Below are positions 47,450 to 64,000 of a stretch of 64,000 bases of DNA, piece after piece. Under the pieces are notes generated by a model that had not been told where the DNA came from, ran no database searches, and was given only the letters and a program-made list of their open reading frames with translations. Source of the stretch: Paracyclopina nana (Eukaryota; Arthropoda; Copepoda; Cyclopoida; Cyclopettidae); assembly GCA_019096065.1 (NCBI GenBank), contig JAGUCH010000002.1, positions 7,762,501 to 7,826,500 on the forward strand, written 5' to 3'. How positions within the stretch are numbered: the first letter of the stretch is position 1; each line of letters starts with the position of its first letter. A program made the translations under genes and the position numbers.

Positions 47450-47859
47450 ATGACGCAAACAACTCACTTAACCAATTTAAGGGAGGAAGTTGCCATGATC
47501 CCGCGGCCTTCAGAGGAGGCCGTGGACTCGGCCACAGCCTACATCAAAAAGGAACCCGATTGCTGCCACCGATGCATCCAACGCTTACAGGTATGTGTGA
47601 TTACGTAATTAGTGCATATGTAAACCTTGACCGTTCATGAATGTAGGAAGCTATAGTGGGAAGCATGGAGAGGTTTTTCTTTTGGTATGGCAAAAGCATA
47701 GCCCAGCGTCCCGGTCTTTTCATCCTGCTTTGCCTTGTCATCACTGGTGTTGCCAGCGTTGGAAACCTAAAAATGCGCATGGAGACCAACGGGCTGAAGC
47801 TGGGCAAAGTCTGCAGAGCCAGCCTACAAATGCAACCAAATCTTAGACAAATTCATTGA
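47450..47859 (+). CDS. Ptr: Patched-related / NPC1-like transporter, 5' part cut by an insertion
   Basis: Exons 47450-47590 and 47647 onwards (phase 0). Encodes MTQTTHLTNLREEVAMIPRP, a cytosolic N-terminus with CCHRC, then EAIVGSMERFFFWYGKSIAQ, the first membrane helix (PGLFILLCLVITGVASVGNL) and METNGLKL, the start of the first extracellular loop. At 47802 a 14.5-kb repeat element interrupts the exon. Translation would run into the element and stop at 47857-47859. The remaining exon resumes after 62321 (LKL|WIPKDSS), exactly where families of this type continue. The copy in this assembly therefore looks disrupted unless another allele exists. Function by family: RND-type, sterol-sensing-domain transporter of the Patched-related group. 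Confidence 0.75.
47795..47802 (+). repeat. Left target-site duplication TGAAGCTG
   Basis: TGAAGCTG precedes the element start (GGCAAAG) and recurs right after its end at 62314-62321. Joining the flanks at one copy restores a continuous coding exon (AAG CTG TGG ATC). The duplication could be read as 9 bp because a C precedes both copies. Confidence 0.85.
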
Positions 47860-47915
47860 ATAAGCAGGTTCCACACAGCCTACTTGTACCAATCAAGTAA
47901 GTATGTTTTCTGTGA
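47803..47915 (+). repeat. Left terminal inverted repeat (unique outer part)
   Basis: Matches the reverse complement of about 62199-62313 with a few substitutions and small indels. It contains a perfect donor-like AA|GTAAGTATG (from 47897) and an in-frame TGA (47857) when read on from the interrupted exon. Confidence 0.85.
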
Positions 47916-49682
47916 CCAGTGTGTTCACTGTGAACAGTGTGATCAGAGTGAACAGAGCGAACAAAGTGATCAGTGTGTTCATGTGTGACCAGTGTGGTCA
48001 CTGTGAACAGTGTGATCAGGGTGAACAAAGTGATCGGTGTGTTCGTGCGACCAATTTTTTCACTGTGAACAGAGTGAACAAAGTGATCGGTGTGTTCATG
48101 TGTGACCAGTGTGTTCATTGTGAACAGTGTGATCAGAGTGAACAAATTGAACAAAGTGATCAGTGTGTTCATGTGTGACCAGTGTGTTCATTGTGAACAG
48201 TGTGATCAGAGTGAACAAAGTGATTGGTGTGTTCTTTGTTAGCATTGTGTTCACTGTGAACAGTGTGATCAGAGTGAACAGAGTGAACAAAGTTATCAGT
48301 GTGTTTGTGTGTGACCAGTGTGTTCACTTAGAACAGTGTGAACAGAGTGAACAGAGTGAACAAAGTGAACAGAGTGAACAAAGTGAACAGAGTGAACAAA
48401 GTGAACAGAGTGAACAAAGTGAACAGAGTGAACAAAGTGAACAGAGTGAACAAAGTGAACAGAGTGAACAAAGTGAACAGAGTGAACAAAGTGAACAGAG
48501 TGAACAAAGTGAACAGAGTGAACAAAGTGAACAGAGTGAACAGAGTGAACAAAGTGAACAGAGTGAACAAAGTGAACAGAGTGAACAAAGTGAACAGAGT
48601 GAACAAAGTGAACAGAGTGAACAAAGTGAACAGAGTGAACAAAGTGAACAGAGTGAACAAAGTGAACAGAGTGAACAAAGTGAACAGAGTGAACAAAGTG
48701 AACAGAGTGAACAAAGTGAACAGAGTGAACAAAGTGAACAGAGTGAACAAAGTGAACAGAGTGAACAAAGTGAACAGAGTGAACAAAGTGAACAGAGTGA
48801 ACAAAGTGAACAGAGTGAACAAAGTGAACAGAGTGAACAAAGTGAACAGAGTGAACAAAGTGAACAGAGTGAACAAAGTGAACAGAGTGAACAAAGTGAA
48901 CAGAGTGAACAAAGTGAACAGAGTGAACAAAGTGAACAGAGTGAACAAAGTGAACAGATTGAACAAAGTGATCAGTGTGGTCACTGTGAACAGTGTGAAC
49001 AGAGTGAACAAAGTGATCGGTGTTTTCTTTGTAAGCAGTGTGTTCATTGTGAACAGTGTGAACAGAGTGAACAAAGAAATCAGTAATCAGTGTGTGTTAT
49101 CTGCGATTGGTGTGTTCTTTGTTAGCACTGTGTTCACTGTGAACAGTGTGATCAGAGTGAACAGAGCGAACAAAGTTATCAGTGTGTTCGTGTGTGACCA
49201 GTGTGTTCACTGTGAACAGTGTGATCAGAGTGAACAGAGCGAACAAAGTGATCAGTGTGTTCATGTGTGACCAGTGTGTTCACTGTGAACAGTGTGATCA
49301 GGGTGAACAAAGTGATCGGTGTGTTCGTGTGACCAATTTTTTCACTGTGAACAGTGTGAACAGAGTGAACAAAGTGATCGGTGTGTTCTTTGTGAGCAGT
49401 GTGTTCATTGTGAACAGTGTGAACAGAGTGAACAAAGTAATCAGTGTGTTTGTGTGACCAATTTGTTCACTGTGAACAGTGTGAACAGAGTGAACAAAGT
49501 GATCGGTGTGTTCTTTGTGAGCAGTGTGTTCATTGTGAACAGTGTGAACAGAGTGAACAAAGTAATCAGTATGTTCGTGTAACCAATTTGTTCACTGTGA
49601 ACAGTGTGAACAGAGTGAACAAAGTGATCGGTGTGTTCTTTGTGAGCAGTGAGTTCACTGTGAACAGAGTGATTATAAGTAA
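47916..49682 (+). repeat. Minisatellite A, left arm (GTGAACAGA/GTGAACAAA family)
   Basis: A 9-bp-based array of GTGAACAGN, GTGATCAGN and GTGTTCANT words, arranged in higher-order blocks of about 40-120 bp. The inverted counterpart is at 60645-62205. A homogeneous 18-bp block lies inside it. Confidence 0.9.
48338..48966 (+). repeat. Homogenised 18-bp block (GTGAACAGAGTGAACAAA)n
   Basis: About 35 near-identical copies of GTGAACAGAGTGAACAAA, with one doubled GTGAACAGA near 48540 and one AGATTG variant at the end. It is absent from the right arm. All three frames stay open, which yields false EQSEQS and VNRVNK proteins. Confidence 0.95.
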
Positions 49683-49997
49683 CGTGAATAATATGCCATG
49701 AGAGGGACAAACTTGTTCGCTAAATGGAATTTTTTAGGCAAGTTTATTTGGAAAAACTGTTGCGCTCAAAACTTGTCACGTGACCACAAGCAGCAATTTG
49801 ATTGGCTGATCAGAGTAGGCAAAGTTTTTCATTTTTGTCTCTAGATTCCAAAACTGCAAATAAATCAAAAATTGGAGCATTTTTTTAATTTTAGCATGCT
49901 TACCGAGTTTACGAAAAGTGGCAGTTGCCAGATAACCAGCGCACAGAAATCCCGAAATCACACATAGCAAATAACAGCCTCATCAGCCATAGGAACA

Positions 49998-50195
49998 CAC
50001 AGAGATCACCTCACTCACCTCACAATCCTCACCCACCTCATCAGCCTCACTCACCTCATCAACCTCACAATCCTCACCCACCTCACAATCCTCACCCACC
50101 TCATCAACATCACAATCCGGCCTAACCCACCTCATAAACCTCACCCACCTCATCAACCTCACTCACCTCATCAACCTCACTCACCTCATCAACCT
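49998..50195 (+). repeat. CCTCAC/CCTCATCAA microsatellite, left arm
   Basis: Tandem CACCTCACTCACCTCATCAA and CACAATCCTCACC units over about 200 bp. A short inverted match (GAGGTGAGTGAGGTTGATGA) sits at 60308-60352 in the right arm. Confidence 0.85.
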
Positions 50196-50860
50196 CGGAC
50201 TTGGACTTGTAATAAACCTTGTAGAGGAGGTTGCCCTGACTTCACAGGTTCAAATTGGAGCCAGAAATCTGGTCTAGAACCGGAGATATCGCTCGCCAAA
50301 GATTACCGCGAAATAGTAGCCTGACTGATGAGTTTTACGGAGGCTTCTAGCTGAGATACCTTGTTTACTATTTAATAAAAAGTGTTCAGTTTGGCCTCCC
50401 ATTTCCAAAACTGTAAAGAGCTATAAAGTCGGGGCATTTTTCAAATTTTGGCATTGATTTGACGGATGAAACGCAGCCTTATGTACTACGTACTACATAG
50501 GGCTTTTCGTTCAGAACTAGCGGCAGTAAAAGTGGAAATATCAATTTTTCTATGAAGTAAAAGTAGTTTCTGCTGAGTCTCAGGATTCCAAAAATGTAAA
50601 CAGATTTAAGATCGGACAACTATGAGCGGAGATAGCGCTGAGCGCTCAGCAGTACAGAACTTCGTTAACAAAAATGCGCTGAGGGACTTTGAGTACTAAT
50701 AATTGTTATAGAGAATGTCAAGACGAATTCATAGCCGCAAAAAGTAGTGAGCTGGGACGCTCCGTTGCGGAGATATGGCTCCCCGAAGTTTACTACATAG
50801 AGGCTTTGTTTACTTTTCATTTTGGGCCCGAATTTGGCTTGTTTTGGGGGCTAAAACTAC
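50196..50860 (+). repeat. Spacer family E, left arm (direct orientation)
   Basis: It contains AAAAAGTGTTCAGTTTGG, CCAAAACTGTAAAGAGCTA, CTGGTCTAGAACCGGAGATA and CGCAAAAAGTAGTGAGCTGG, all of which recur in the same orientation at 59100-60250, unlike the arrays, which are inverted. A smaller related piece lies at about 49790-49920. Confidence 0.75.
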
Positions 50861-51059
50861 TCGAAATGGGCAGTGGCCAGATATCCAGCGCACAGAATCC
50901 CCGAAATAGGCACGCCCGCATTCATTGAGCATCACAAATGCAAGAAGTCACAGCACACAGAATGCCCGAAATGGGCTCGCCCGCAACTGAGCATCACAAA
51001 AAGGAAACACAGGAATCCCAAGAAAAACGGGCTAACCCAGCGCCACCAAAAGCTTACCG

Positions 51060-52830
51060 GGCGCGCGCTAGCGGTTGCGAGGGCCCTCAAACAATAAAAA
51101 AAACTTTGTCTTTCCTTCCGCGTCCTCACTGTGCTCACCCAGAGCCGCTTGAAGCGACCCGGGCTGGCGTCCTCACCAAACGCCGACCAAAGCTTCCCGG
51201 GCGCGCGTGCGCGCGAGGGACCTGTAGCAAAAAAAAACTTGGTCTTTCCTTTCGCGTCCTCACTGTGCTCACCCAGACCCGCTGGAAGCGAGCCCGGCCG
51301 GCGTGCGCACCCAACGCCGACCAATGCTTCCCGGGCGCGCGCGCACGAGGGACCTGTAGCAACAAAAAAACTTGGTCTTTCCTTTCGCGTCCTCACTGTG
51401 CTCACCCAGACCCGCTGGAAGCGAGCCGGGCCGGCGTGCGCACCCAACGCCGACCAAAGCTTCCCGGGCGCACGCGCACGAGGGACCTGTAGCAACAAAA
51501 AAACTTGGTCTTTCCTTTCGCGTCCTCACTGTGCTCACCCAGACCCGCTGGAAGCGAGCCGGGCCGGCGTGCGCACCCAACGCCGACCAAAGCTTCCGGG
51601 GCGCGCGCGCGCGAGGGACATGTAGCAAAAAAAAAACTTGGTCTTTCCTTTCGCGTCCTCACTGTGCTCACCCAGACCCGCTGGAAGCGAGCCGGGCCGG
51701 CGTGCTCACCCTACGCAAGCAAAAGCTTCCCGCGCGAGCGCGCGCCCGGCGCTCTAGCGAAAAAAAAACTTGGTCTTTCCTTTCGCGTCCTCACTGTGCT
51801 CACCCAGACCCGCTGGAAGCGAGCCGGGCCGGCGTGCGCACCCTACGCAAGCCAAAGCTTCCCGGGCGCGCGCGAGGGAGCTCTAGCGAAAAAAAAACTT
51901 GGTCTTTCCTTTCGCGTCCTCACTGTGCTCACCCAGACCCGCTGGAAGCGAGCCGGGCCGGCGTGCGCACCCAACGCCGACCAAAGCTTCCCGGGCGCGC
52001 GCGCGCGAGGGACCTGCAGCAACAAAAAAACTTAGTCTTTCCTTTCGCGTCCTCACTGTGCTCACCCAGACCCGCTGGAAGCGAGCCGGGCCGGCGTGCG
52101 CACCCAACGCCGACCAAAGCTTCCCGGGCGCGCGCGCGCGAGGGACCTGCAGCAACAAAAAAACTTAGTCTTTCCTTTCGCGTCCTCACTGTGCTCACCC
52201 AGACCCGCTGGAAGCGAGCCGGGCCGGCGTGCTCACCCTACGCAAGCAAAAGCTTCCCGCGCGAGCGCGCGCCCGGCGCTCTAGCGAAAAAAAAACTTGG
52301 TCTTTCCTTTCGCGTCCTCACTGTGCTCACCCAGACCCGCTGGAAGCGAGCCGGGCCGGCGTGCTCACCCTACGCAAGCCAAAGCTTCCCGGGCGCGCGC
52401 GAGGGAGCTCTAGCGAAAAAAAAACTTGGTCTTTCCTTTCGCGTCCTCACTGTGCTCACCCAGACCAGCTGGAAGCGAGCCGGGCCGGCGTGCTCACCCT
52501 ACGCAAGCCAAAGCTTCCCGGGCGCGCGCGAGGGAGCTCTAGCGAAAAAAAAACTTGGTCTTTCCTTTCGCGTCCTCACTGTGCTCACTCAGACCAGCTG
52601 GAAGCGAGCCGGGCCGGCGTGCGCACCCAACGCTGACCAAAGCTTCCCGGGCGCGCGCGCGCGAGGGACCTGCAGCAACAAAAAAACTTAGTCTTTCCTT
52701 TCGCGTCCTCACTGTGCTCACCCAGACCCGCTGGAAGCGAGCCGGGCCGGCGTGCGCACCCAACGCCAGCCAAAGATTCTCGGGCGCGCGAGAGCAGTCG
52801 CGAGGACCCTCTAGCAACAAAAAAAACATT
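51060..52830 (+). repeat. GC-rich 133-bp tandem array, left arm (about 13 copies)
   Basis: Each unit carries CTTTCCTTTCGCGTCCTCAC, TGTGCTCACCCAGACCCGCT, GGAAGCGAGCCGGGCCGGCG, AAGCTTCCCGGGCGCGCGCG and a poly(A) run. Two subtypes alternate: CAACGCCGACC with GGGACCTG, and CTACGCAAGC with GAGCTCTAGCG. It is very CpG-rich compared with the AT-rich surroundings. Long overlapping ORFs in it are artefacts of stop-poor GC repeats. The inverted counterpart is at 56780-58365. Confidence 0.92.
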
Positions 52831-52894
52831 GACTTTCCTTCTTGCCTGTATAAAATATGTAATTTTTATCAGTGAATGGTCACATAACCGGAGT

Positions 52895-55285
52895 TTCGCA
52901 CTAGGAGACTAGTTCTGTCAAAACTAGATGAACAGGCCAAACATTACGCGAAATATTGCTTCTAGCTCAAAAAAGTGGCCAAAAAATATGCTACATTTCA
53001 GCATTTTGCACTGGAAGACTAGTCTGGTCAAAACTAGGTGAAACAAAGACCAAAGTTTGGCCTTTGTCAAAAAATGCAATTTCACTCTGGCAATTTTTCA
53101 CGTTACGCGAGTTCCGCTCCTAGCTCAAAAAAGTTGCCAGAAAATATGCAAGTTTCAGTTTGTCTTTGCACTAGGAGACTAGTCCTGTCAAAACTAGGTG
53201 AAACAAAGACCAAAGTTTGGCCTTTGTCAAAAAATGCAATTTCACTCTGGCAATTTTTCACGTTACGTGAGTTTCGCTCTCAGTTCAAAAAAGTCGCCAA
53301 AAAATATGCTAGTTTCAGTTAGTTTTTGCACTAGGAGACTAGTCTGGTCAAAACTAGGAGAAGCAAAGGCTTAATTGGCCTTTGTCAAAAAATGCAATTT
53401 TGCACCAGTAATTACTCACGTTACGCGAGTTTCGCTCCCAGTTCAAAAAAGTTGCCAAAAAATATGCTAGTTTCAGTTAGTTTTTGCACTAGGAGACTAG
53501 TCTGGTCAAAACTAGGAGAAGCAAAGGCTTAATTTTGGCCTTTGTCAAAAAATGCTATTTTGCTCCAATAGTTATTCACGTTACGCGAGTTTCGCTCCCA
53601 GTTCAAAAAAGTCGCCAAAAAATATGCTAGTTTCAGTTAGTTTTTGCACTAGGAGACTAGTCTGGTCAAAACTAGGAGAAGCAAAGGCTTAATTTTGGCC
53701 TTTGTCAAAAAATGCAATTTTGCTCCAATAGTTATTCACGTTACGCGAGTTTCGCTCCCAGTTCAAAAAAGTCGCCAAAAAATATGCTAGTTTCAGTTAG
53801 TTTTTGCACTAGGAGACTAGTCTGGTCAAAACTAGGTGAAGCAAAGGCTTAATTTTGGCCTTTGTCAAAAAATGCAATTTTGCTCCAGTAATTATTCACG
53901 TTACACGAGTTTCGCTCTCAGTTCAAAAAAGTCGCCAAAAATTATGCTAGTTTCAGTTAGTTTTTGCACTAGGAGACTAGTCTGGTCAAAACTAGGTGAA
54001 GCAAAGGCTTAATTTTGGCCTTTGTCAAAAAATGCAATTTCACTTTGGCAATTTTTCACGTTACGCGAGTTCCGCTCCTAGCTCAAAAAAGTTGCCAAAA
54101 AATATGCTAATTTCAGTTAGTTTTGGCACTAGGAGACTAGTCCTGTCAAAACTAGGTGAAACAAAGACCAAAGTTTGGCCTTTGTCAAAAAATGCAATTT
54201 AACTCTGGCAATTTTTCACGTTACGCGAGTTCCGCTCCTAGCTCAAAAAAGTTGCCAAAAAATATGCTAATTTCAGTTAGTTTTGGCACTAGGAGACTAG
54301 TCTGGTCAAAACTAGGTGAAGCAAAGGCTTAATTTTGGCCTTTGTCAAAAAATGCAATTTTGCTCCAGTAATTATTCACGTTACACGAGTTTCGCTCTCA
54401 GTTCAAAAAAGTCGCCAAAAATTATGCTAGTTTCAGTTAGTTTTTGCACTAGGAGACTAGTCTGGTCAAAACTAGGAGAAGCAAAGGCTTAATTTTGGCC
54501 TTTGTCAAAAAATGCAATTTTGCACCAGTAATTACTCACGTTACGCGAGTTTCGCTCCCAGTTCAAAAAAGTTGCCAAAAAATATGCTAGTTTCAGTTAG
54601 TTTTTGCACTAGGAGACTAGTCTGGTCAAAACTAGGAGAAGCAAAGGCTTAATTTTGGCCTTTGTCAAAAAATGCAATTTTGCTCCAATAGTTATTCACG
54701 TTACGCGAGTTTCGCTCCCAGTTCAAAAAAGTCGCCAAAAAATATGCTAGTTTCAGTTAGTTTTTGCACTAGGAGACTAGTCTGGTCAAAACTAGGAGAA
54801 GCAAAGGCTTAATTTTGGCCTTTGTCAAAAAATGCAATTTTGCTCCAGTAATTATTCACGTTACGCGAGTTTCGCTCCCAGTTCAAAAAAGTCGCCAAAA
54901 AATATGCTAGTTTCAGTTAGTTTTTGCACTAGGAGACTAGTCTGGTCAAAACTAGGTGAAGCAAAGGCTTAATTTTGGCCTTTGTCAAAAAATGCAATTT
55001 CACTTTGGCAATTTTTCACGTTACGCGAGTTCCGCTCCTAGCTCAAAAAAGTTGCCAAAAATATGCTAATTTCAGTTAGTTTTGGCACAGGGAGACTAGT
55101 CCTGTCAAAACTAGGTGAAACAAAGACCAAAGTTTGGCCTTTGTCAAAAAGTGCAATTTTGCTCATGCAATTATTCACGTTACGCGAATTCCGCTCCTAG
55201 CTCAAAAAAGTTGCCAAAAAAAAAATGCTAGTTTCTGTTAGCATTTTGCACTAGGAGACTAGTCATGTGAAAACTAGGTGAAAAA
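52895..55285 (+). repeat. Core array 1, about 160-bp unit (about 15-16 copies)
   Basis: The unit contains GCACTAGGAGACTAGTCTGG, TTTTGGCCTTTGTCAAAAAA and TTCACGTTACGCGAGTTTCG. Copies recur every 159-161 bp. It has no inverted partner elsewhere in the element, so it belongs to the asymmetric core. Confidence 0.9.
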
Positions 55286-55289
55286 AAAG

Positions 55290-56770
55290 CAAAACTTGCG
55301 CATCGCAGTATACTTCTGCTTAACTGCAGGGGAAAACGCGAAATTCTTGACCTAGTCAAATTTGAGTCAAAATGTCAGTTGCAGCTGTTACTTTGAGGCA
55401 AGTTGACCCTAAATGTGAGGCAAAGTAAAATATTTGACTCATTTTGAATTCGCAAGAGCGAAAACTTGCGCATTGCAGTAAACTGCTACTAAGCAGCAAA
55501 GAAGACACGTAATTCTTGCCCTAGTCTTTGAGTCAAAATGTCAGTTGCAGCTGTTACTTTGAGGCAAGTTGACCCTAAATGTGAGGCAAAGTAAAATATT
55601 TGACTCATTTTGAATTCGCAAAAGCGAAAACTTGCGCACCATGGTATGCTTCTGCTAAACTGCAAGGAAAACGCGAAATTCTTGCCCTAGTCAAATTTGA
55701 GTCAAAATGTCAGTTGCAGCTGTTACTTTGAGGCAAGTTGACCCTAAATGTGAGGCAAAGTAAAATATTTGACTCATTTTGAATTCGCATTCGCGAAAGC
55801 GAAAACTTGCGCACCGTGGTATACTGCTACTAAGCTGCAAAGAAAACACGAAATTCTTGACCTAGTCAAATTTGAGTCAAAATGTCAGTTGCAGCTGTTA
55901 CATTGAGGCAAGTTGACCCTAAATGTGAGGCAAAGTAAAATATTTGACTCATTTTGAATTCGCATTCGCGAAAGCGAAAACTTGCGCACCGTGGTATACT
56001 TCTGCTAAACTGCAAGGAAAACGCAAAATTCTTGACCTAGTCAAATTTGAGTCAAAATGTCAGTTGCAGCTGTTACTTTGAGGCAAGTTGACCCTAAATG
56101 TGAGGCAAAGTAAAATATTTGACTCATTTTGAATTCGCATTCGCGAAAGCGAAAACTTGCGCACCGTGGTATACTTCTGCTAAACTGCAAGGAAAACGCA
56201 AAATTCTTGACCTAGTCAAATTTGAGTCAAAATGTCAGTTGCAGCTGTTACTTTGAGGCAAGTTGACCCTAAATGTGAGGCAAAGTAAAATATTTGACTC
56301 ATTTTGAATTCGCAAAAGCGAAAACTTGCGCACCGTGGTACACTTCTGCTAAACTGCAAAGAAGACACATAATTCTTGCCCTAGTCAAATTTGAGTCAAA
56401 ATGTCAGTTGCAGTTGTTACTTTGAGGCAAGTTGACCCTAAATGTGAGGCAAAGTAAAATATTTGACTCATTTTGAATTCGCAAAAGCGAAAACTTGCGC
56501 ACCGTGGTATACTGCTACTAAGCTGCAAAGAAAACACGAAATTCTTGACCTAGTCAAATTTGAGTCAAAATGTCAGTTGCAGCTGTTACATTGAGGCAAG
56601 TTGACCCTAAATGTGAGGCAAAGTAAAATATTTGAGTCATTTTGAATTCGAACAAGCGAAAACTTGCGCACCGTGGTATACTGCTACTAAGCTGCAAAAA
56701 ACGAAATTCTTGACCTAGTCTTTGAGTCAAAATGTCAAAATGTAAGCTGTTACTTTTGACTCAATTTGAA
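55290..56770 (+). repeat. Core array 2, about 163-176-bp unit (about 9 copies)
   Basis: The unit contains GCGAAAACTTGCGCACCGTG, GAGTCAAAATGTCAGTTGCA and GTTGACCCTAAATGTGAGGC. Units differ by small indels; the last one (about 56720) is degenerate and merges into the GC-rich array. It is present once only. Confidence 0.9.
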
Positions 56771-56779
56771 TTCGCAAGA

Positions 56780-58365
56780 GGATGGCAAAAGGAAAGACCA
56801 AGTTTTTTTGTTGCTACAGGTCCCTCGCGCGCGCGCGCCCGGAAAGCTTTGGTCGGCGCTGGGTGCGCACACCGGCCCGGCTCGCTTCCAGCGGGTCTGG
56901 GTGAGCACAGTGAGGACGCGAAAGGAAAGACTAAGTTTTTTTGTTGCTGCAGGTCCCTCGCGCGCGCGCGCCCGGGAAGCTTTGGTCAGCGTTGGGTGCG
57001 CACGCCGGCCCGGCTCGCTTCCAGCGGGTCTGGGTGAGCACAGTGAGGACGCGAAAGGAAAGACTAAGTTTTTTTGTTGCTGCAGGTCCCTCGCGCGCGC
57101 GCGCCCGGGAAGCTTTGGTCAGCGTTGGGTGCGCACGCCGGCCCGGCTCGCTTCCAGCTGGTCTGGGTGAGCACAGTGAGGACGCGAAAGGAAAGACCAA
57201 GTTTTTTTTTCGCTAGAGCTCCCTCGCGCGCGCCCGGGAAGCTTTGGCTTGCGTAGGGTGAGCACGCCGGCCCGGCTCGCTTCCAGCGGGTCTGGGTGAG
57301 CACAGTGAGGACGCGAAAGGAAAGACCAAGTTTTTTTTTCGCTAGAGCGCCGGGCGCGCGCTCGCGCGGGAAGCTTTTGCTTGCGTAGGGTGAGCACGCC
57401 GGCCCGGCTCGCTTCCAGCGGGTCTGGGTGAGCACAGTGAGGACGCGAAAGGAAAGACTAAGTTTTTTTTTGCTGCAGGTCCCTCGCGCGCGCGCGCCCG
57501 GGAAGCTTTGGTCGGCGTTGGGTGCGCACGCCGGCCCGGCTCGCTTCCAGCGGGTCTGGGTGAGCACAGTGAGGACGCGAAAGGAAAGACTAAGTTTTTT
57601 TGTTGCTGCAGGTCCCTCGCGCGCGCCCGGGAAGCTTTGGTCGGCGTTGGGTGCGCACGCCGGCCCGGCTCGCTTCCAGCGGGTCTGGGTGAGCACAGTG
57701 AGGACGCGAAAGGAAAGACCAAGTTTTTTTTTCGCTAGAGCTCCCTCGCGCGCGCCCGGGAAGCTTTGGCTTGCGTAGGGTGAGCACGCCGGCCCGGCTC
57801 GCTTCCAGCGGGTCTGGGTGAGCACAGTGAGGACGCGAAAGGAAAGACCAAGTTTTTTTTTCGCTAGAGCGCCGGGCGCGCGCTCGCGCGGGAAGCTTTT
57901 GCTTGCGTAGGGTGAGCACGCCGGCCCGGCTCGCTTCCAGCGGGTCTGGGTGAGCACAGTGAGGACGCGAAAGGAAAGACTAAGTTTTTTTGTTGCTGCA
58001 GGTCCCTCGCGCGCGCGCGCCCGGGAAGCTTTGGTCAGCGTTGGGTGCGCACACCGGCCCGGCTCGCTTCCAGCGGGTCTGGGTGAGCACAGTGAGGACG
58101 CGAAAGGAAAGACCAAGTTTTTTTTTCGCTAGAGCGCCGGGCGCGCGCTCGCGCGGGAAGCTTTTGCTTGCGTAGGGTGAGCACGCCGGCCCGGGTCGCT
58201 TCCAGCGGGTCTGGGTGAGCACAGTGAGGACGCGAAAGGAAAGACCAAGTTTTTTTTTTTGCTACATGTCCCTCGGCATTGGGTGCGCACGCCGGCCCGG
58301 GTCGCTTCCAGCGGGTCTGGGTGAGCACAGTGAGGACGCAAAAGGAAAGACAAAGGTTTTTTTCA
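56780..58365 (-). repeat. GC-rich 133-bp tandem array, right arm (about 12 copies)
   Basis: Reverse complement of the array at 51060-52830 with the same two subtypes mixed in (GCTTTGGTCGGCGTTGGG and GCTTTGGCTTGCGTAGGG forms). Marker words AGTGAGGACGCGAAAGGAAA recur about every 130 bp. Confidence 0.92.
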
Positions 58366-58595
58366 ATTGTGGGCGGGCCCATTTTGGGGATTCTGTGTTT
58401 TGTGCAGTCATGATGCTAATTGGATGCGGGCGTGCTTATTTCGGGAATTCTGTGTTCTGTGCTTGATTCGTTTGTGATGCTCAATGGATGCGGGCGTGCC
58501 TATTTCGGGGATTCTGTGCGCTGGATATCTGGCCACTGCCTCGAAATGAGACAATTCTTCCTTCCAAGGCTTCCTCTTATTGTTTTCTTTGACTT

Positions 58596-58981
58596 TAGCT
58601 TGTTCTCATAAACATTTCTATAAGGTAAGCAAGGCACTTTGCGCGCTTATATCTCAGCATCTACTCGTCCGATTGGAACCAAATTTGGAGGAATTCATAA
58701 GGACGTATTGAAGAATCTTCATGCCAATTTTCATCCGGATTGGAGGACGCTGAGGCCGCCTTACTGAAAGTGAGGCAAATCAGTTAAGCAAAGGAGAAAA
58801 ATCAGCCACCTCCTTAGAGTTCTCCGATCCGGATGAAAATTGGCATGAAGATTCCTCAATATGCTCTTATGAATCCCTCCAAATTTGGTTCCAATCGGCT
58901 CAATACTTACTGAGCTATGAGCTTCCAAAGTGCCTTGCTTTGCTTACCGCCTGCCTTACTGAGTTTTATGAGAACAAGCTA
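58596..58981. mobile_element. Nested hairpin MITE in the right arm
   Basis: TAGCTTGTTCTCATAAA at the left is mirrored by TTTATGAGAACAAGCTA at the right, and most of the 386 bp folds on itself: GATTGGAACCAAATTTGGAG and CATGCCAATTTTCATCCGGA each have an inverted partner. It is absent from the left arm, so it inserted after the arms formed. The target duplication is unclear. Confidence 0.75.
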
Positions 58982-58984
58982 TTT

Positions 58985-60307
58985 TCATGAATTTGAAAAC
59001 TTTATAGCTTTCTAGAGTTGAATTTTCCACGAATAACGGATCGCGTCAAATTTTGAGCGATCGATTTAAAGTTTAAATGCGGACTTTGCCTACTAATAGA
59101 GGTTGTAAAGCTGATTGCCCTGACTTCATAGTATCAAATTGGGGCCAGATATCTGGTCTAGAACCGGAGATATCGCGCCCCAAAGTTTACCGCTAAATAG
59201 CAGCCTTACTGCTGAGTTTTGCGGAGACTTCTAGCTGAGTTGCTTGAATGATTTACAAATAAAAAGTGTTCCATTTGATCTCCTAATTCCAAAACTGTAA
59301 AGAGCTCCAAAATCGGAGCATTTTTCGAATTTTGGCATTGATTAGACGGATGAAACGCAGCCTTATGTACTACGTACTACATAGAGCGTTTCGATCAGAA
59401 CTAGCGGGTGTAAAAGTCAAAATATCAACTTTATTATGATATAAAACTTTAATCTGCTGAGTCTCTGGATTCCAAATATGTAAGCAGTTTTAAAATCGGA
59501 CAACTACGAGCGGAGATAGCGCTGAGCGCTCAGCACTACAGATCTCCGTAAATGAAAATGCGCTGAGAGATTTTGAGTGCTAATAAAAGTGATTGATAAT
59601 GTCAAGACGAATTCATAGCCGCAAAAAGTAGTGAGCTGGGACGCTCCGTTGCTGAGATATCGATCGTCAAAGTTTACTACTGCTGAGCCCCAAGAAAAAG
59701 TGCACTTTTTCGCTGAGTTCTCCGGAGATATCGCGCGCCAAAGTTTAGTGCTTAACAGCAGCCAAACTGCTGAGTTTTATGGAGACTTCTAGCTGAGTTG
59801 CTTAAATGACTTAAAAATAGAAAGTGTTCAGTTTGATCTATAGATTCCAAATTTGTAAATAGATCAAACACTGGAGCATTTTTCGAATTTTAGCACTGAA
59901 TACGAGTTTGAAACAGCAGCTTTCTTTCAGTAATACCCACAACATAGCCTAACTGCTGAGATTTACGGAGACAAGGCGCTGAGATATCTTGTTTACTTAG
60001 TAATAAAAAGTGTTCAGTTTGGTCTCCCATTTCCAAAACTGTAAAGAGATACAAAATCAGAGCATTTTTCGAATTTTAGCACTGAATACGAGTTTGAAAC
60101 AGCAGCTTTCTGTACTACGCACTACATAGCCTAACTGCTGAGTTTTACGGAGACAAGGCGCTGAGATATCTTGTTTACTTAGTAATAAAAAGTGTTCAGT
60201 TTGGTCTCTAGATTCCAAAACTTAAAAGATCAATAGTCAGAGCATTTTCAAATTTTGGCATCATTACCGAGTATTATAAGCAATGGGTTATGTACTACAA
60301 GGCGAGT
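58985..60307 (+). repeat. Spacer family E, right arm (several tandem units)
   Basis: Units of about 180 bp with AAAAAGTGTTCAGTTTGG, GGAGCATTTTTCGAATTTT, CACTGAATACGAGTTTGAAA and GCTGAGTTTTACGGAGAC recur at about 59265, 59825, 60010 and 60190. Orientation is the same as in the left arm (50196-50860). Confidence 0.75.
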
Positions 60308-60644
60308 ACAGTGAGGTGAGTGAGGTTGATGAGGTGAGTGAGGTGAGTGAGGTCTCTGCTGGGCAGGGTTTTATGCTGAGCATATCTGGCTAAATATGTC
60401 CGCTGCTGAGCGGCACAGCACCAAATCCTTTGGTGTGCTGAGTCATGGCATCTAGTAGATCATTTGTGCCAAGTCTCAGCCCAACCGGAGAACTCAGCAG
60501 AAAAGTGCACTTTTTCAGAGGGCTCAGAAGTAATAAAATTTGATGATCAATATCTCAGCAACGGAGCGTCTCAGGAAGAATCTATTCACTGTTCTGAAGT
60601 CGTGCTGAGCTCCTCTACATGTTTGCATGTCATAGTCAGAGAGA

Positions 60645-62205
60645 TCACACTGATAACTTTGTTCACTCTGTTCACACTGTTCACAGCTAGTGAAGCAATT
60701 GGTCACAAAGAACACACCGAATACTTTGTTCACTCTGTTCACACTGTTCACAGCGAACAAATTGGTCACGCACGAACACACTGATTACTTTGTTCACTCT
60801 GTTCACAATGTTCACACTGTTCACAGTGAACACACTGCTCACAAAGAACAAACCGATCACTTTGTTCACTCTGTTCACACTGTTCACAGTGAACAAATTG
60901 GTCACACAAACACACTGATTACTTTGTTCACTCTGTTCACACTGTTCACACTGCTCACAAAGAACACACCGATCACTTTGTTCACTCTGTTCACACTGTT
61001 CACAGTGTTCACAGTGAACACACTGCTCACAAAGAACACACTGATTACTTTGTTCACTCTGTTCACACTGTTCATAGTGAACACACTGCTCACAAAGACC
61101 ACACTGATCACTTTGTTCACTCTGTTCACAATGTTCACACTGTTCACAGTGAACACACTGCTCACAAAGAACAAACTGATCACTTTGTTCACTCTGTTCA
61201 CACTGTTCACAGCGAACAAATTGGTCACGCACGAACACACTGATTACTTTGTTCTCTCTGTTCACAATGTTCACACTGTTCACAGTGAACACACTGCTCA
61301 CAAAGAACAAACCGATCACTTTGTTCACTCTGTTCACACTGTTCACAGTGTTCACAGTGAACACACTGCTCACAAAGAACACACTGATTACTTTGTTCAC
61401 TCTGTTCACACTGTTCATAGTGAACACACTGCTCACATAGACCACACTGATCACTTTGTTCACTCTGTTCACAATGTTCACACTGTTCACAGTGAACACA
61501 CTGCTCACAAAGAACAAACTGATCACTTTGTTCACTTTGTTCACTCTGTTCACACTGTTCACAGTGAACAAATTGGTCACACAAACACACTGATTACTTT
61601 GTTCACTCTGTTCACACTGCTCACAAAGAACACACCGATCACTTTGTTCACTCTGTTCACACTGTTCACAGTGTTCACAGTGAACACACTGTTCACAATG
61701 AACACACTGATTACTTTGTTCACTGTGTTCACTATGTTCACACTGTTCACAGTGAACACACTGGTCACAGATAACTCACTGATTATTTTGTTCACACTGA
61801 TCACTTTGTTCACTATGTTCACTCTGTTCACAGTGAAAACACTAGTCACACACGAAGACAATGATCACTTTGTTCACTCTGATCACAATGTTCACAATGA
61901 ACACACTGGTCACAGATAACACACTGATTACTTTGTTCACTCTGCTCACTATGTTCACACTGTTCACAGTGAACACTCTGGTCACAGATAACACACCGAT
62001 CACAATGTTCACAGTGAACACACTGGTCACAGATAACACACCGATCACTTTGTTCACTTCGTTCACTCTTATCACAATGTTCACAGTGAACACACTGGTC
62101 ACAGGTAACACACTGATCACTTTGTTCACTCTGATCACACTGGTTACACATGAACACACTGATCACTTTGTTCACTCTGATCACACTGTTCACAGTGAAG
62201 ACACC
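60645..62205 (-). repeat. Minisatellite A, right arm (inverted)
   Basis: CACTGTTCACAGTGAACACA, ACTTTGTTCACTCTGTTCAC and GATCACTTTGTTCAC words in higher-order blocks, the reverse complement of 47916-49682. The homogeneous 18-bp block of the left arm is missing here. Long ORFs rich in VNSVNRVNK or TLFTLFT are artefacts. Confidence 0.9.
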
Positions 62206-62283
62206 GGTCACAGAAAAAACACATACTTGATCTATACAAGTAGGCTATGTGCTTATTCAATGAATTTGTCTAAGTTTTGGTTG

Positions 62284-62657
62284 CATTTGTAGGCTGGCTC
62301 TGCAGACTTTGCCTGAAGCTGTGGATCCCAAAAGATTCTAGCCAAAGGATCAACACCGACTGGCTGTGGGACAATTACCCACCTGAGCTAAGGTTCTCGT
62401 CAGTCATATTTGTGGCTGACAACGTGCTGGAGCCTGACGTGATCAGAGCAATGTACTCACTGCACAAGGGCATTTGTAGGCTGGCTCTGCAGACTTTGCC
62501 TGAAGCTGTGGATCCCAAAAGATTCTAGCCAAAGGATCAACACCGACTGGCTGTGGGACAATTACCCACCTGAGCTAAGGTTCTCGTCAGTCATATTTGT
62601 GGCTGACAACGTGCTGGAGCCTGACGTGATCAGAGCAATGTACTCACTGCACAAGGG
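62284..62657 (+). repeat. 187-bp tandem duplication spanning element end and host exon
   Basis: 62284-62470 and 62471-62657 appear identical. Each copy starts CATTTGTAGGCTGGCTCTGC (the last 30 bp of the element), then TGAAGCTG and the exon from TGGATCCC to CTGCACAAGGG. GGGCAT/TTGCAT microhomology lies at the joins. Because 187 is not a multiple of 3, reading from the first copy into the second shifts frame and ends after PEAVDPKRF. Confidence 0.92.
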
Positions 62658-64000
62658 CATTGACGCAATTGTCACTGAGAAAGGGTTCAGATGGAAAGAT
62701 TTGTGCATGAAAGCCCCCATCGTGAAGCCGCCAGATCTTACCACCATCTTCAACTTTGGTCGTCGAAGGCGAAAACGCCAAGATGACTTTGACTTTGATG
62801 GCTTCAATGATGACGACTTTTTTGATGAGGCAGAGTCCGACATCTTTTCCAACGAGACCACAGAAGTCGATGATGCCAGCGCCTCGGGAGAGTATTTCAA
62901 CGTGGCCTTCTATCCACAACCTTATTGTGATATAGTTGAAAAGCTGGAATATGCATGTCTAGAGACCAGCATTGTTGAGCTTTGGGCCAACGACGGAAAG
63001 TACGATGAGGCCACCGATGCAGCTATGGAGAGCTTGACCCTAGAAGATGTGCTTAGTGTGATAAATGGGAGGAACAAGTCCGGAGTCTTCCTCTTGGAAA
63101 AAGACTTCACCAGCCTCCTCTCTAAAATCACGAGGGACGAAAGTGGTCGGATCATCAAAGCAGAGGCTGCCACCATGAGGTGGTTCGGCAAGATGAACGC
63201 AACAGATGCGAGGGAAAATCCAGTGCCTGGTCGAGGCGAACCGATCGACATAGCAACTTTTGATTTCGAGGCTGAAATGCTCAACGTGATGCTGAACACG
63301 AGCGCCTATCCGGAAGGCTTGGAGTCATTTCCAAACGTGAAGCGAAGCTTTGGTGACATTGCAGGCTCCACCATTTTGGGCGATGTCAGCATGATGGTGA
63401 TTGGGTACATGCTAGTGTTCTTCTATGTCATGATAATGCTTGGCAGGATGAATAGCATTGAACAGAGATCATTCCTCTCAACAGTAGGAATAGTATCCAT
63501 CATCATGGGCATCGTGGTCTCTTATGGATGTTGCTCCGCGGTCAACCTTTTTTTCGGTCCGATGCATTCTGTGTTACCGTAAGTGCTAAATGGAACCGAT
63601 GCATATCTCCCAAGTATAACTGACTTATTTCTAATTTCAATTCCAGGTTCTTGTTGCTGGGTATTGGAATTGATGATATGTTCGTGATAGTTCAGTGTTG
63701 GGATACTCTTGAGGCTCAACGCAAGAACAAGCCTAGGAATCCGCAGCAGAGCGAGCTCAGCTTACCCGATCGTATAGGAGAGACTCTTTCTCAAGCCGGA
63801 GTGGCAATAACCATTACGTCAGTCACAGATATCATAGCCTTTGGGGTAGGTGGGACCACAGTGCTGCCAGCCTTGATGTCATTTTGCTTGTACGCATCTG
63901 TGGGCATTGTGGCCACATTTTTCTTTCAATGCACCTTTTTCGTGGCCTGGTTCTCGCTGGACATCAAACGAGTAGAAGCCAACAGAAATGCGTGCATCCC
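62509..64000 (+). CDS. Ptr: Patched-related / NPC1-like transporter, 3' part (continues past the right edge)
   Basis: Open from the second exon copy: 62509-63578, then 63647 to beyond 64000 (phase 2 junction, GTAAGT...TTCCAG). Starts WIPKDSSQRINTDWLWDNYP, then the first extracellular loop (VFVADNVLEPDVIRAMYSLH-like segment, FRWKDLCMKAP, an RRRRKRQ basic stretch and an Asp-rich run). The sterol-sensing-domain helices follow: GDVSMMVIGYMLVFFYVMIM, FLSTVGIVSIIMGIVVSYG, FLLLGIGIDDMFVIVQCW with the family GIGIDD motif, AGVAITITSVTDIIAFGVGG and SFCLYASVGIVATFFFQCTF. This matches Patched-domain-containing proteins (fly Ptr, nematode PTR) more than NPC1 proper, which has a longer luminal N-terminus. 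It joins 47647-47802 across the inserted element. Confidence 0.85.

What the first reader, a model, noticed from the sequence alone, without database searches (positions are those of the whole stretch)
47795..62321. A 14.5-kb Foldback-like element sits inside a coding exon with an apparent 8-bp target duplication
The flanks rejoin at TGAAGCTG to restore LKL|WIPKDSS of a Patched-related gene, and the element ends are mirror images (GGCAAAGTCTGCAG). A near-pristine, very large, satellite-built element in an exon suggests recent movement and probably an insertion polymorphism. No transposase is visible, so an autonomous partner should exist elsewhere. I know of no arthropod element with these ends and this array content.
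Basis: partly seen in the sequence, partly recalled or inferred. Interest (0 to 1): 0.88.

Follow-up and report, generated by a model that had tools for sequence, protein, structure and literature searches.

The report
Nested satellite-built transposons in an exon
A stretch of 14.5 thousand bases that breaks a Patched-related gene turns out to be one jumping element with a second one inside it, and the inner one belongs to a recently spread family, some copies over 30 thousand bases long, that looks as if it carries blocks of satellite DNA around this animal's genome.

Summary
TGAAGCTG flanks 47803-62313, the tips mirror each other, and removing the insert restores a Patched-related frame; six of 32 homologues cover the site in one stretch of equal length. 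But it is not one element. It is a nest: an outer foldback-like element (about 6.4 kb of its own), an independent inner element (50869-58540, 7,672 bp, own tips, own 8-bp duplication TCGAAATG, uninterrupted site in three other loci) and a 384-bp foldback repeat. A perfect 187-bp tandem duplication across the right junction also shifts the frame. The genome holds 141 inner-type and 60 outer-type tips (up to 3 mismatches; 0 in controls). Of 40 tip pairs examined, 35 have perfect 8-bp duplications, four of them on spans of 30-53 kb; eight of 15 exact outer tips had no partner in reach. Four inner-family copies read in full have ends 98-100% identical while a core array varies more than fourfold. 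Best reading: recently active, non-autonomous, cut-and-paste elements that carry satellite arrays. Diverged arrays also occur outside mapped spans. No transposase was found in the window element or the mapped spans; a Mutator-like donor is favoured but unproven. Not tested: empty allele, long reads, expression.

The parts
47646..47802 (+). 5' part of a coding exon of a Patched-related gene, up to and including the left TSD copy
   Evidence: In-frame translation MERFFFWYGK...NGLKL; homologues P0001 and P0020 align from their first residue. The exact exon start is inferred from the splice-like context.
47795..47802 (.). Outer 8-bp target-site duplication, left copy (TGAAGCTG)
47803..62313 (.). 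Outer foldback-like element with everything nested inside it (14,511 bp; about 6.4 kb of its own)
   Evidence: sister copies at C8:1123391-1129398 and C2:2254063-2264392
47803..49673 (+). Outer left arm: tip, then degenerate 9-bp and 125-bp tandem arrays
   Evidence: TRF; arms 76% alike over about 1.7 kb
49920..49957 (+). Solo relic of an inner-type tip inside the outer element, also present in two sister copies
50861..50868 (.). Inner 8-bp target-site duplication, left copy (TCGAAATG)
50869..58540 (.). Inner element, 7,672 bp, tips GGCAGTGGCCAGATATCCAGCGCACAGAAT
   Evidence: uninterrupted site (up to 3 mismatches) in L027, L029 (=L2829) and L034
51035..52790 (+). Inner left arm: 133-bp satellite, about 13 copies
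52967..55282 (+). 160-bp core satellite, about 14.5 copies, shared with the 110-bp-arm subfamily
55285..56737 (+). 175-bp core satellite, about 8.6 copies (169 bp in the 110-bp-arm subfamily)
56788..58275 (-). Inner right arm: the 133-bp satellite inverted, about 11 copies
58541..58548 (.). Inner 8-bp target-site duplication, right copy (TCGAAATG)
58597..58980 (.). 384-bp foldback repeat (MITE-like), absent from the C8 sister copy
   Evidence: fold z-score -19.9 against 100 shuffles for 58590-58990
60727..62313 (-). Outer right arm (9-bp and 72-bp tandem arrays) and right tip
62314..62321 (.). Outer 8-bp target-site duplication, right copy (TGAAGCTG)
62283..62656 (+). Perfect 187-bp tandem duplication: the last 31 bp of the element, the TSD and 148 bp of exon, twice; GCATT shared at the breakpoints
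62500..63555 (+). 3' part of the Patched-related exon, open and homologous to 32 proteins, many with precomputed Pfam PF02460 and PF12349

Best explanation
The insertion is a nest of non-autonomous cut-and-paste DNA transposons of foldback architecture. The outer element (tips GGCAAAGTCTGCAGAGCCAG, arms of short tandem repeats) entered the exon of a Patched-related gene and duplicated 8 bp. A second element, from a larger family with tips GGCAGTGGCCAGATATCCAG and four satellite arrays (inverted arm array, 160-bp array, 175-bp array, arm array), inserted into the outer element and duplicated its own 8 bp. A 384-bp foldback repeat inserted as well. A transposase supplied in trans is inferred to recognise the roughly 50-bp tips, excise everything between them and rejoin it at an AT-rich 8-bp staggered cut. 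Between jumps the arrays inside gain and lose copies. Shown: tips, 8-bp duplications, uninterrupted sites, sister copies, shared architecture. Inferred: trans-mobilisation, loss of gene function, array growth by unequal exchange or slippage, and a Mutator-like rather than Merlin-like transposase. The order (inner landed before or after the outer entered the exon) is open.
For: Perfect 8-bp duplications in 35 of 40 tip pairs examined: inner family 25 of 29, GGCTGCG-tip family 7 of 7, outer family 2 of 3, GGCYAAG-tip family 1 of 1. The site of the inner element is uninterrupted in three other loci, in two of which it lies in an outer-family copy with paired tips. Tip counts are 72+69 and 22+38 against 0 in the reversed-pattern controls. 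The last 200 bp at each end are 98-100% identical among four inner-family copies on three contigs that have four different duplications, while their 159-bp arrays run from 4.5 to 20.5 copies. The order tip, arm array, 160-bp array, 175-bp array, inverted arm array holds in those four and in the window, with L069 in reverse and with an extra block of other repeats in the left arm of L070. The listed part of 464 matches to a 159-bp monomer, grouped by eye into 13 clusters, lies in 12 inner-family spans. Host homologues run across the outer insertion site.
Against: No transposase was seen in the window element, and none of the 5 MULE and 9 of 11 P-type positions compared lies in the 39 mapped spans. 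Five of 40 pairs lack a perfect duplication: two at 7/8, one at 4/8, one at 2/8, one with a rearranged right end. Of 15 exact outer tips, six make the three pairs, one is the window's duplicated copy, and eight have no partner outer tip in the roughly 9-10 kb fetched on their inner side. The pairs were chosen by me as neighbouring convergent tips; only 100 of the 141 inner-type places were listed, and some listed candidates (for example C1:10204277/10204731 and C4:9525993/9553291) were not examined. Six other fetched loci hold diverged 160-bp arrays (80-87% identity) outside the mapped inner spans: L034, L038, L039, L046 with an outer-type tip in the same locus, L041 and L044 without a tip at 3 mismatches. 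The exact 187-bp duplication could signal an assembly error. No reads were available.
Confidence: 0.92

Rival explanations
1. A single 14.5-kb Foldback-like element jumped into the exon as one unit, and all the satellites are its own.
For: One pair of outer tips and one outer 8-bp duplication bracket everything.
Against: The inner 7,672 bp has its own tips and its own 8-bp duplication. The C8 sister copy is about 99% identical over the three best stretches outside the left arm and has the site uninterrupted. The inner family has many copies at places where the outer search found no outer end.
Confidence: 0.05
2. The structure is an assembly artefact: satellite-rich reads were misjoined into the exon.
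For: A perfect 187-bp tandem duplication sits across the right junction, and long arrays are hard to assemble.
Against: Exact 8-bp duplications at both nested levels, and 33 further pairs with exact duplications, are not what misjoins give.
Confidence: 0.04
3. The donor transposase is of the Merlin (IS1595-related) superfamily rather than Mutator-like. This rivals only the inferred enzyme; the anatomy stays the same.
For: Merlin elements are described with conserved terminal 5'-GG-3' and 8- or 9-bp duplications, and some hold internal tandem repeats (PMC8101967, passages).
Against: No match in this genome to PF12762 or NF033547, although both rang in one of 14 control genomes, a prokaryote; no genome with a eukaryotic Merlin was tried as a control. 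MULE PF10551 gives 5 hits over the cut-off in open frames of 252-537 aa.
Confidence: 0.25
4. The satellites are ordinary genomic satellites into which short tips happened to insert; the arrays are not carried by the elements.
For: Array lengths differ between copies. The 464 monomer matches were not all listed and 84 of 124 candidates were not scored. Six fetched loci hold diverged 160-bp arrays outside the mapped inner spans.
Against: The listed monomer rows, the ones most alike, lie between paired tips. The same four-array order recurs in five copies with different duplications. Four of the six diverged loci have an outer-type tip too.
Confidence: 0.07

Closest known systems
Tetris, a foldback element of Drosophila virilis (PMC4079207; abstract and the section 'Characterization of Tetris' read)
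   Same: Apparently non-autonomous; long inverted arms holding tandem repeats; 8-9 bp duplications in complete copies (9-10 in rearranged ones); no conserved ORF; linked to satellite arrays.
   Different: Tetris has one repeat of about 220 bp in its arms. Here the centre too is made of two satellites without strong likeness to each other, spans reach 30-53 kb, and I could not compare the end sequences themselves.
Cg_HINE non-autonomous Helentrons of the Pacific oyster (PMC7492417; abstract and outline read)
   Same: Mobile elements that scatter satellite-like arrays of one, exceptionally two, clusters through a genome.
   Different: Those are classed as Helentrons. Here there are inverted tips and 8-bp duplications, as in cut-and-paste elements.
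Tm1, a Mutator/foldback family of root-knot nematodes (PMC3169594; abstract and the TIR-motif section read)
   Same: Composite inverted repeats with a variable number of tandem motifs; non-autonomous members beside a Phantom-like Mutator transposase.
   Different: 9-bp duplications, 8-21 bp motifs and other termini; no satellite core mentioned in what I read.
Merlin DNA transposons (PMC8101967, passages read)
   Same: 5'-GG termini, 8- or 9-bp duplications, tandem repeats in some families.
   Different: No IS1595-type transposase was detected in this genome.

Membership tests
Foldback-type (structural class) DNA transposon | Long inverted arms composed of tandem repeats | tested here: met
   Outer arms about 1.7 kb at 76%, inner arms about 1.8 kb at 86%; nine of nine elements tested show inverted arms from the tips inward, 76-86%
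Foldback-type (structural class) DNA transposon | Target-site duplication of near-constant length (8-10 bp in Tetris, 9 bp in Tm1) | tested here: met
   8 bp, perfect in 35 of 40 pairs; papers
Mutator-like elements (MULE) | Duplication of 8-11 bp | tested here: met
   8 bp; range from PMC6446971 (passage)
Mutator-like elements (MULE) | MULE transposase between tips of the same family | tested here: not met
   5 PF10551 hits in the genome, none inside 39 mapped spans. Not filed as a MULE; works like one.
Mutator-like elements (MULE) | The genome's MULE copies share these tips | not tested
Merlin | Terminal GG and 8- or 9-bp duplication | tested here: met
Merlin | IS1595-type transposase present | tested here: not met
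   PF12762 and NF033547: 0 hits in this genome, each rings in 1 of 14 controls, a prokaryote
hAT and KDZ | Transposase present in the genome | tested here: inconclusive
   0 hits, but no control rang either; the termini do not look like the hAT termini I recall
P superfamily (including Galileo) | P-type transposase between these tips | tested here: not met
   11 hits, no control rang; 9 of the 11 positions compared, none inside 39 mapped spans

The most novel reading that the evidence does not exclude
This genome's 160-bp and 175-bp satellites exist mainly as cargo of 'satellite transposons': cut-and-paste elements with no genes whose whole interior is four satellite arrays in a fixed order, still moving, able to move as units of 30-53 kb and able to nest inside one another. 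The diverged arrays found outside mapped spans would then be decayed copies.
Probability: 0.3. Interest if true: 0.78.

Novelty: new variant of a known kind. Interest (0 to 1): 0.6.

Why it matters
How satellite DNA gets from one chromosomal place to another is an old question. Here the vehicle, its ends, its landing scars and many copies with different array lengths are all visible in one small genome. Comparing copies with near-identical ends but arrays of 4.5 to 20.5 units can show how fast arrays grow and shrink after, or between, jumps. The exon insertion is a natural loss-of-function candidate and may well be polymorphic if it is recent.

Tried and rejected
Single-element reading: rejected (inner tips, inner duplication and uninterrupted sites).

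The insert as a spliced intron: looked at by eye only. Reading on from LKL into the element meets a stop (TGA at 47857) after 18 codons, before the best-looking donor, so I did not pursue it. No splice test was run.

Identifying the species by its assembly size in the literature gave nothing usable. The homologues carry no organism names.

Transposase hunt: Merlin 0, MULE 5, hAT 0, KDZ 0, P-type 11, IS1595 0; none inside 39 spans (9 of the 11 P-type positions were entered, the other two being pieces within 0.5 kb of an entered one). Ten ORFs picked by me from fetched loci (one search lists more) gave three with ordinary gene families and seven with nothing in Pfam. One MULE hit (C1:17718506) lies 4.4 kb from an inner-type tip (C1:17714056), but that tip faces away from it, so I gave it no weight.

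Prior description: in the titles and abstract openings listed I saw no description of these tips or of this four-array architecture; one search found no paper. Full texts were not read for this beyond the sections and passages named in the report. Repbase and Dfam could not be searched.

Full report
What was checked. TGAAGCTG stands at 47795-47802 and at 62314-62321, the tips are GGCAAAGTCTGCAGAGCCAG on both sides, and joining the flanks with one TGAAGCTG reads through as NGLKLWIPKDSSQRINTDWLWDNYPPEL. Six of the 32 homologous proteins found cover the insertion site in one stretch of equal length on both sides (95-100 residues, 40-72% identity); the others start beyond the site, match weakly elsewhere or gave no match to this stretch. 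So the insert is foreign to the gene. Random 8-mers from the window agree in 12 of 400,000 draws.

It is a nest. A sister copy at C8:1123391-1129398 is 6,008 bp long and has its own duplication CAACTGTT. It matches the window element at 98.9-99.5% over the three best stretches outside the left arm, and at 93% and 84% in the best two of the left arm. It lacks 50869-58540. At that point the C8 copy reads ACTACTCGAAATGAGACAATTC, whereas the window has TCGAAATG, then GGCAGTGGCCAG...CTGGCCACTGCC, then TCGAAATG. The same site is uninterrupted, with up to three mismatches, in the third outer copy at C2:2254063-2264392 and in a locus on C9 (L034) that has one outer-type tip. The third copy is diverged inside (best stretches about 78-80%) and carries part of its interior in the other orientation. 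So 7,672 bp of the 14,511 are an independent inner element. A further 384 bp (58597-58980) form a near-perfect foldback (z -19.9) absent from C8. About 6.4 kb remain as the outer element itself.

The right junction. 187 bp from the last 31 bases of the element into the exon are repeated in tandem without a mismatch, with GCATT shared at the breakpoints. 187 is not a multiple of three, so this adds a frameshift to the insertion. It may be a real later duplication or an assembly fault; only reads can tell.

The families. With up to three mismatches the inner tip occurs 141 times (72 and 69 on the two strands) and the outer tip 60 times (22 and 38) in 92 Mb, against none for the reversed patterns. 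The outer-tip list includes two related tip families, GGCTGCGTCTGCAGAGCCAG and GGCYAAGACTGCACAGCCAG. I examined 40 convergent pairs of neighbouring tips, chosen; the list stops at 100 places and not every candidate pair in it was examined. 35 have a perfect 8-bp duplication: 25 of 29 of the inner family (9 of 11, one of one, 10 of 10, 5 of 7), 7 of 7 of the GGCTGCG family, 2 of 3 of the outer family and 1 of 1 of the GGCYAAG family. The five others are two at 7 of 8, one at 4 of 8, one at 2 of 8, and one with a rearranged right end. Of the 15 exact outer tips, eight have no partner within the stretches fetched, so the outer family is less tidy than the inner one. Inner-family spans run from 1,112 to 53,430 bp with a median of 7,334 and a sum of 313 kb. 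The 53-kb span (CCATTTCA) and two 30-kb spans (TATTAATA and TAAGTCTG), and one 33-kb span of the GGCTGCG family (ATAAAAAA), have perfect duplications. I did not read their interiors, so later nested insertions may account for part of their length. The 35 perfect duplications average 30% G+C with an AT-rich middle, against 43.5% for window 1-47000.

The architecture. In the window the inner element is tip, 133-bp satellite, 160-bp satellite, 175-bp satellite, inverted 133-bp satellite, tip. Four other copies read in full (L067-L070) have the same order, L069 in reverse, with a 110/140-bp arm satellite in place of the 133-bp one, a 159-bp and a 169-bp core satellite, and a 197-bp spacer between the core arrays that the window copy lacks. 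L070 has an extra block of other repeats in its left arm. Their outermost 200 bp are 98-100% identical and the spacer is 99-100% identical, although the duplications of L067, L068, L069 and L070 differ (CATTTTGG, AAAATATC, GGAATTTT, GATAAATC). The 159-bp array has 5.5, 20.5, 4.5 and 14.5 copies in the same order. So the ends moved recently while the arrays changed length. A 159-bp monomer from L068 has 464 matches; the rows that were listed, grouped by eye into 13 clusters, fall into 12 inner-family spans. The unlisted rows, and the 84 of 124 candidates that were not scored, could lie elsewhere. Indeed six other fetched loci hold 160-bp arrays at 80-87% identity to the window's monomer outside those spans: L034, L038, L039 and L046, which also have an outer-type tip, and L041 and L044, which have no tip at three mismatches. 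These may be decayed or related elements, or satellite that was never in an element.

The enzyme. By eye none of the 39 stop-to-stop ORFs of 100 aa or more in the window element reads as a transposase, and the eight that I put through Pfam gave nothing above a curated cut-off. The genome has 5 MULE hits in open frames of 252-537 aa and 11 P-type hits, and no Merlin/IS1595 hit; hAT and KDZ gave none, but their controls were silent too. None of the 5 MULE and 9 of 11 P-type positions compared lies in the 39 mapped spans. GG termini and 8-bp duplications suit Merlin (PMC8101967, passages); 8-bp duplications also suit Mutator-like elements, for instance one complete Spectre element with 8 bp and Phantom with 8-10 bp, Phantom being recorded from crustaceans among others (PMC6446971, passages and one section). 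I favour Mutator-like, at about even odds, because among the types tried only that one combines a fitting duplication length with uninterrupted open frames at every hit and working controls in this search. This is inference.

How it most likely works. A transposase in trans cuts at the tips and pastes the whole interval at an 8-bp stagger (scar shown, enzyme inferred). The interior need not encode anything, so arrays can drift in number by slippage or unequal exchange (copy-number differences shown, process inferred). Elements land in each other (shown here) and, in this case, in an exon (shown), which should abolish the gene on this haplotype (inferred). Whether the inner element landed before or after the outer one entered the exon is not settled.

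Known kinds. Tetris of Drosophila virilis is the nearest in build and in its link to satellites (PMC4079207, abstract and one section). Oyster Cg_HINE elements carry satellite-like arrays but are Helentrons (PMC7492417, abstract and outline). Tm1 of root-knot nematodes is a Mutator/foldback family with variable tandem motifs (PMC3169594, abstract and one section). Two reviews were seen in passages only (PMC12628747; PMC6431247). What differs here is the centre of two satellites with inverted satellite arms, the size, and the evident recent spread of the inner family. I call it a new variant of a known kind. The listings showed no description of these families; transposon databases could not be searched.

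Noticed in passing
window 62283-62656: A perfect 187-bp tandem duplication spans the right junction of the insertion (element end, TSD and exon), with a 5-bp microhomology GCATT at its breakpoints; it shifts the frame.
   Followed up: partly
window 58597-58980: A 384-bp near-perfect foldback repeat, absent from the C8 sister copy; no clear target-site duplication was worked out.
   Followed up: partly
window 49920-49957, L027:2623-2660, L029:2054-2091: A solo inner-type tip (GGCAGTTGCCAGATAACCAG in the window) lies at the same place inside three outer elements, in reverse orientation in L029; an old nested relic without a partner found.
   Followed up: partly
G000 C2:209723-219266, C2:5590746-5594645, C2:10832741-10839670, C2:13852639-13859917, C3:4934729-4940545, C4:1129858-1162979, C4:3105974-3112216: A further family with tips GGC(T/A)GCGTCTGCAGAGCCAG: seven pairs, all seven with perfect 8-bp duplications, one span of 33 kb. 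Interiors not read.
   Followed up: partly
L037:3419-8826 (G000 C2:16649918-16655325): A fourth related family (tips GGCYAAGACTGCACAGCCAG, duplication TATTTTCA), 5.4 kb, holding a diverged array of the 175-bp satellite.
   Followed up: partly
G000 C2:196938, C2:514575, C2:258041 (ends of L038, L039, L046): Three outer-type tips are followed within about 20-55 bp by diverged 175-bp and then 160-bp satellite arrays instead of the usual outer arm, suggesting exchange of interiors between families.
   Followed up: partly
L044:5103-8556 (G000 C7) and L041:6706-8370 (G000 C2): Diverged 160- and 175-bp arrays (with a 110-bp array in L044) at places without a recognisable tip at 3 mismatches.
   Followed up: no
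G000 C4:3621964 and C4:3651200 (L018, L019): Two outer-type tips 29 kb apart have identical flanks, so they look like a local duplication rather than two insertions.
   Followed up: no
G000 C1:7813061, C5:1232660, C3:7186108: P-type transposase homologues, each with one stop inside the match.
   Followed up: no
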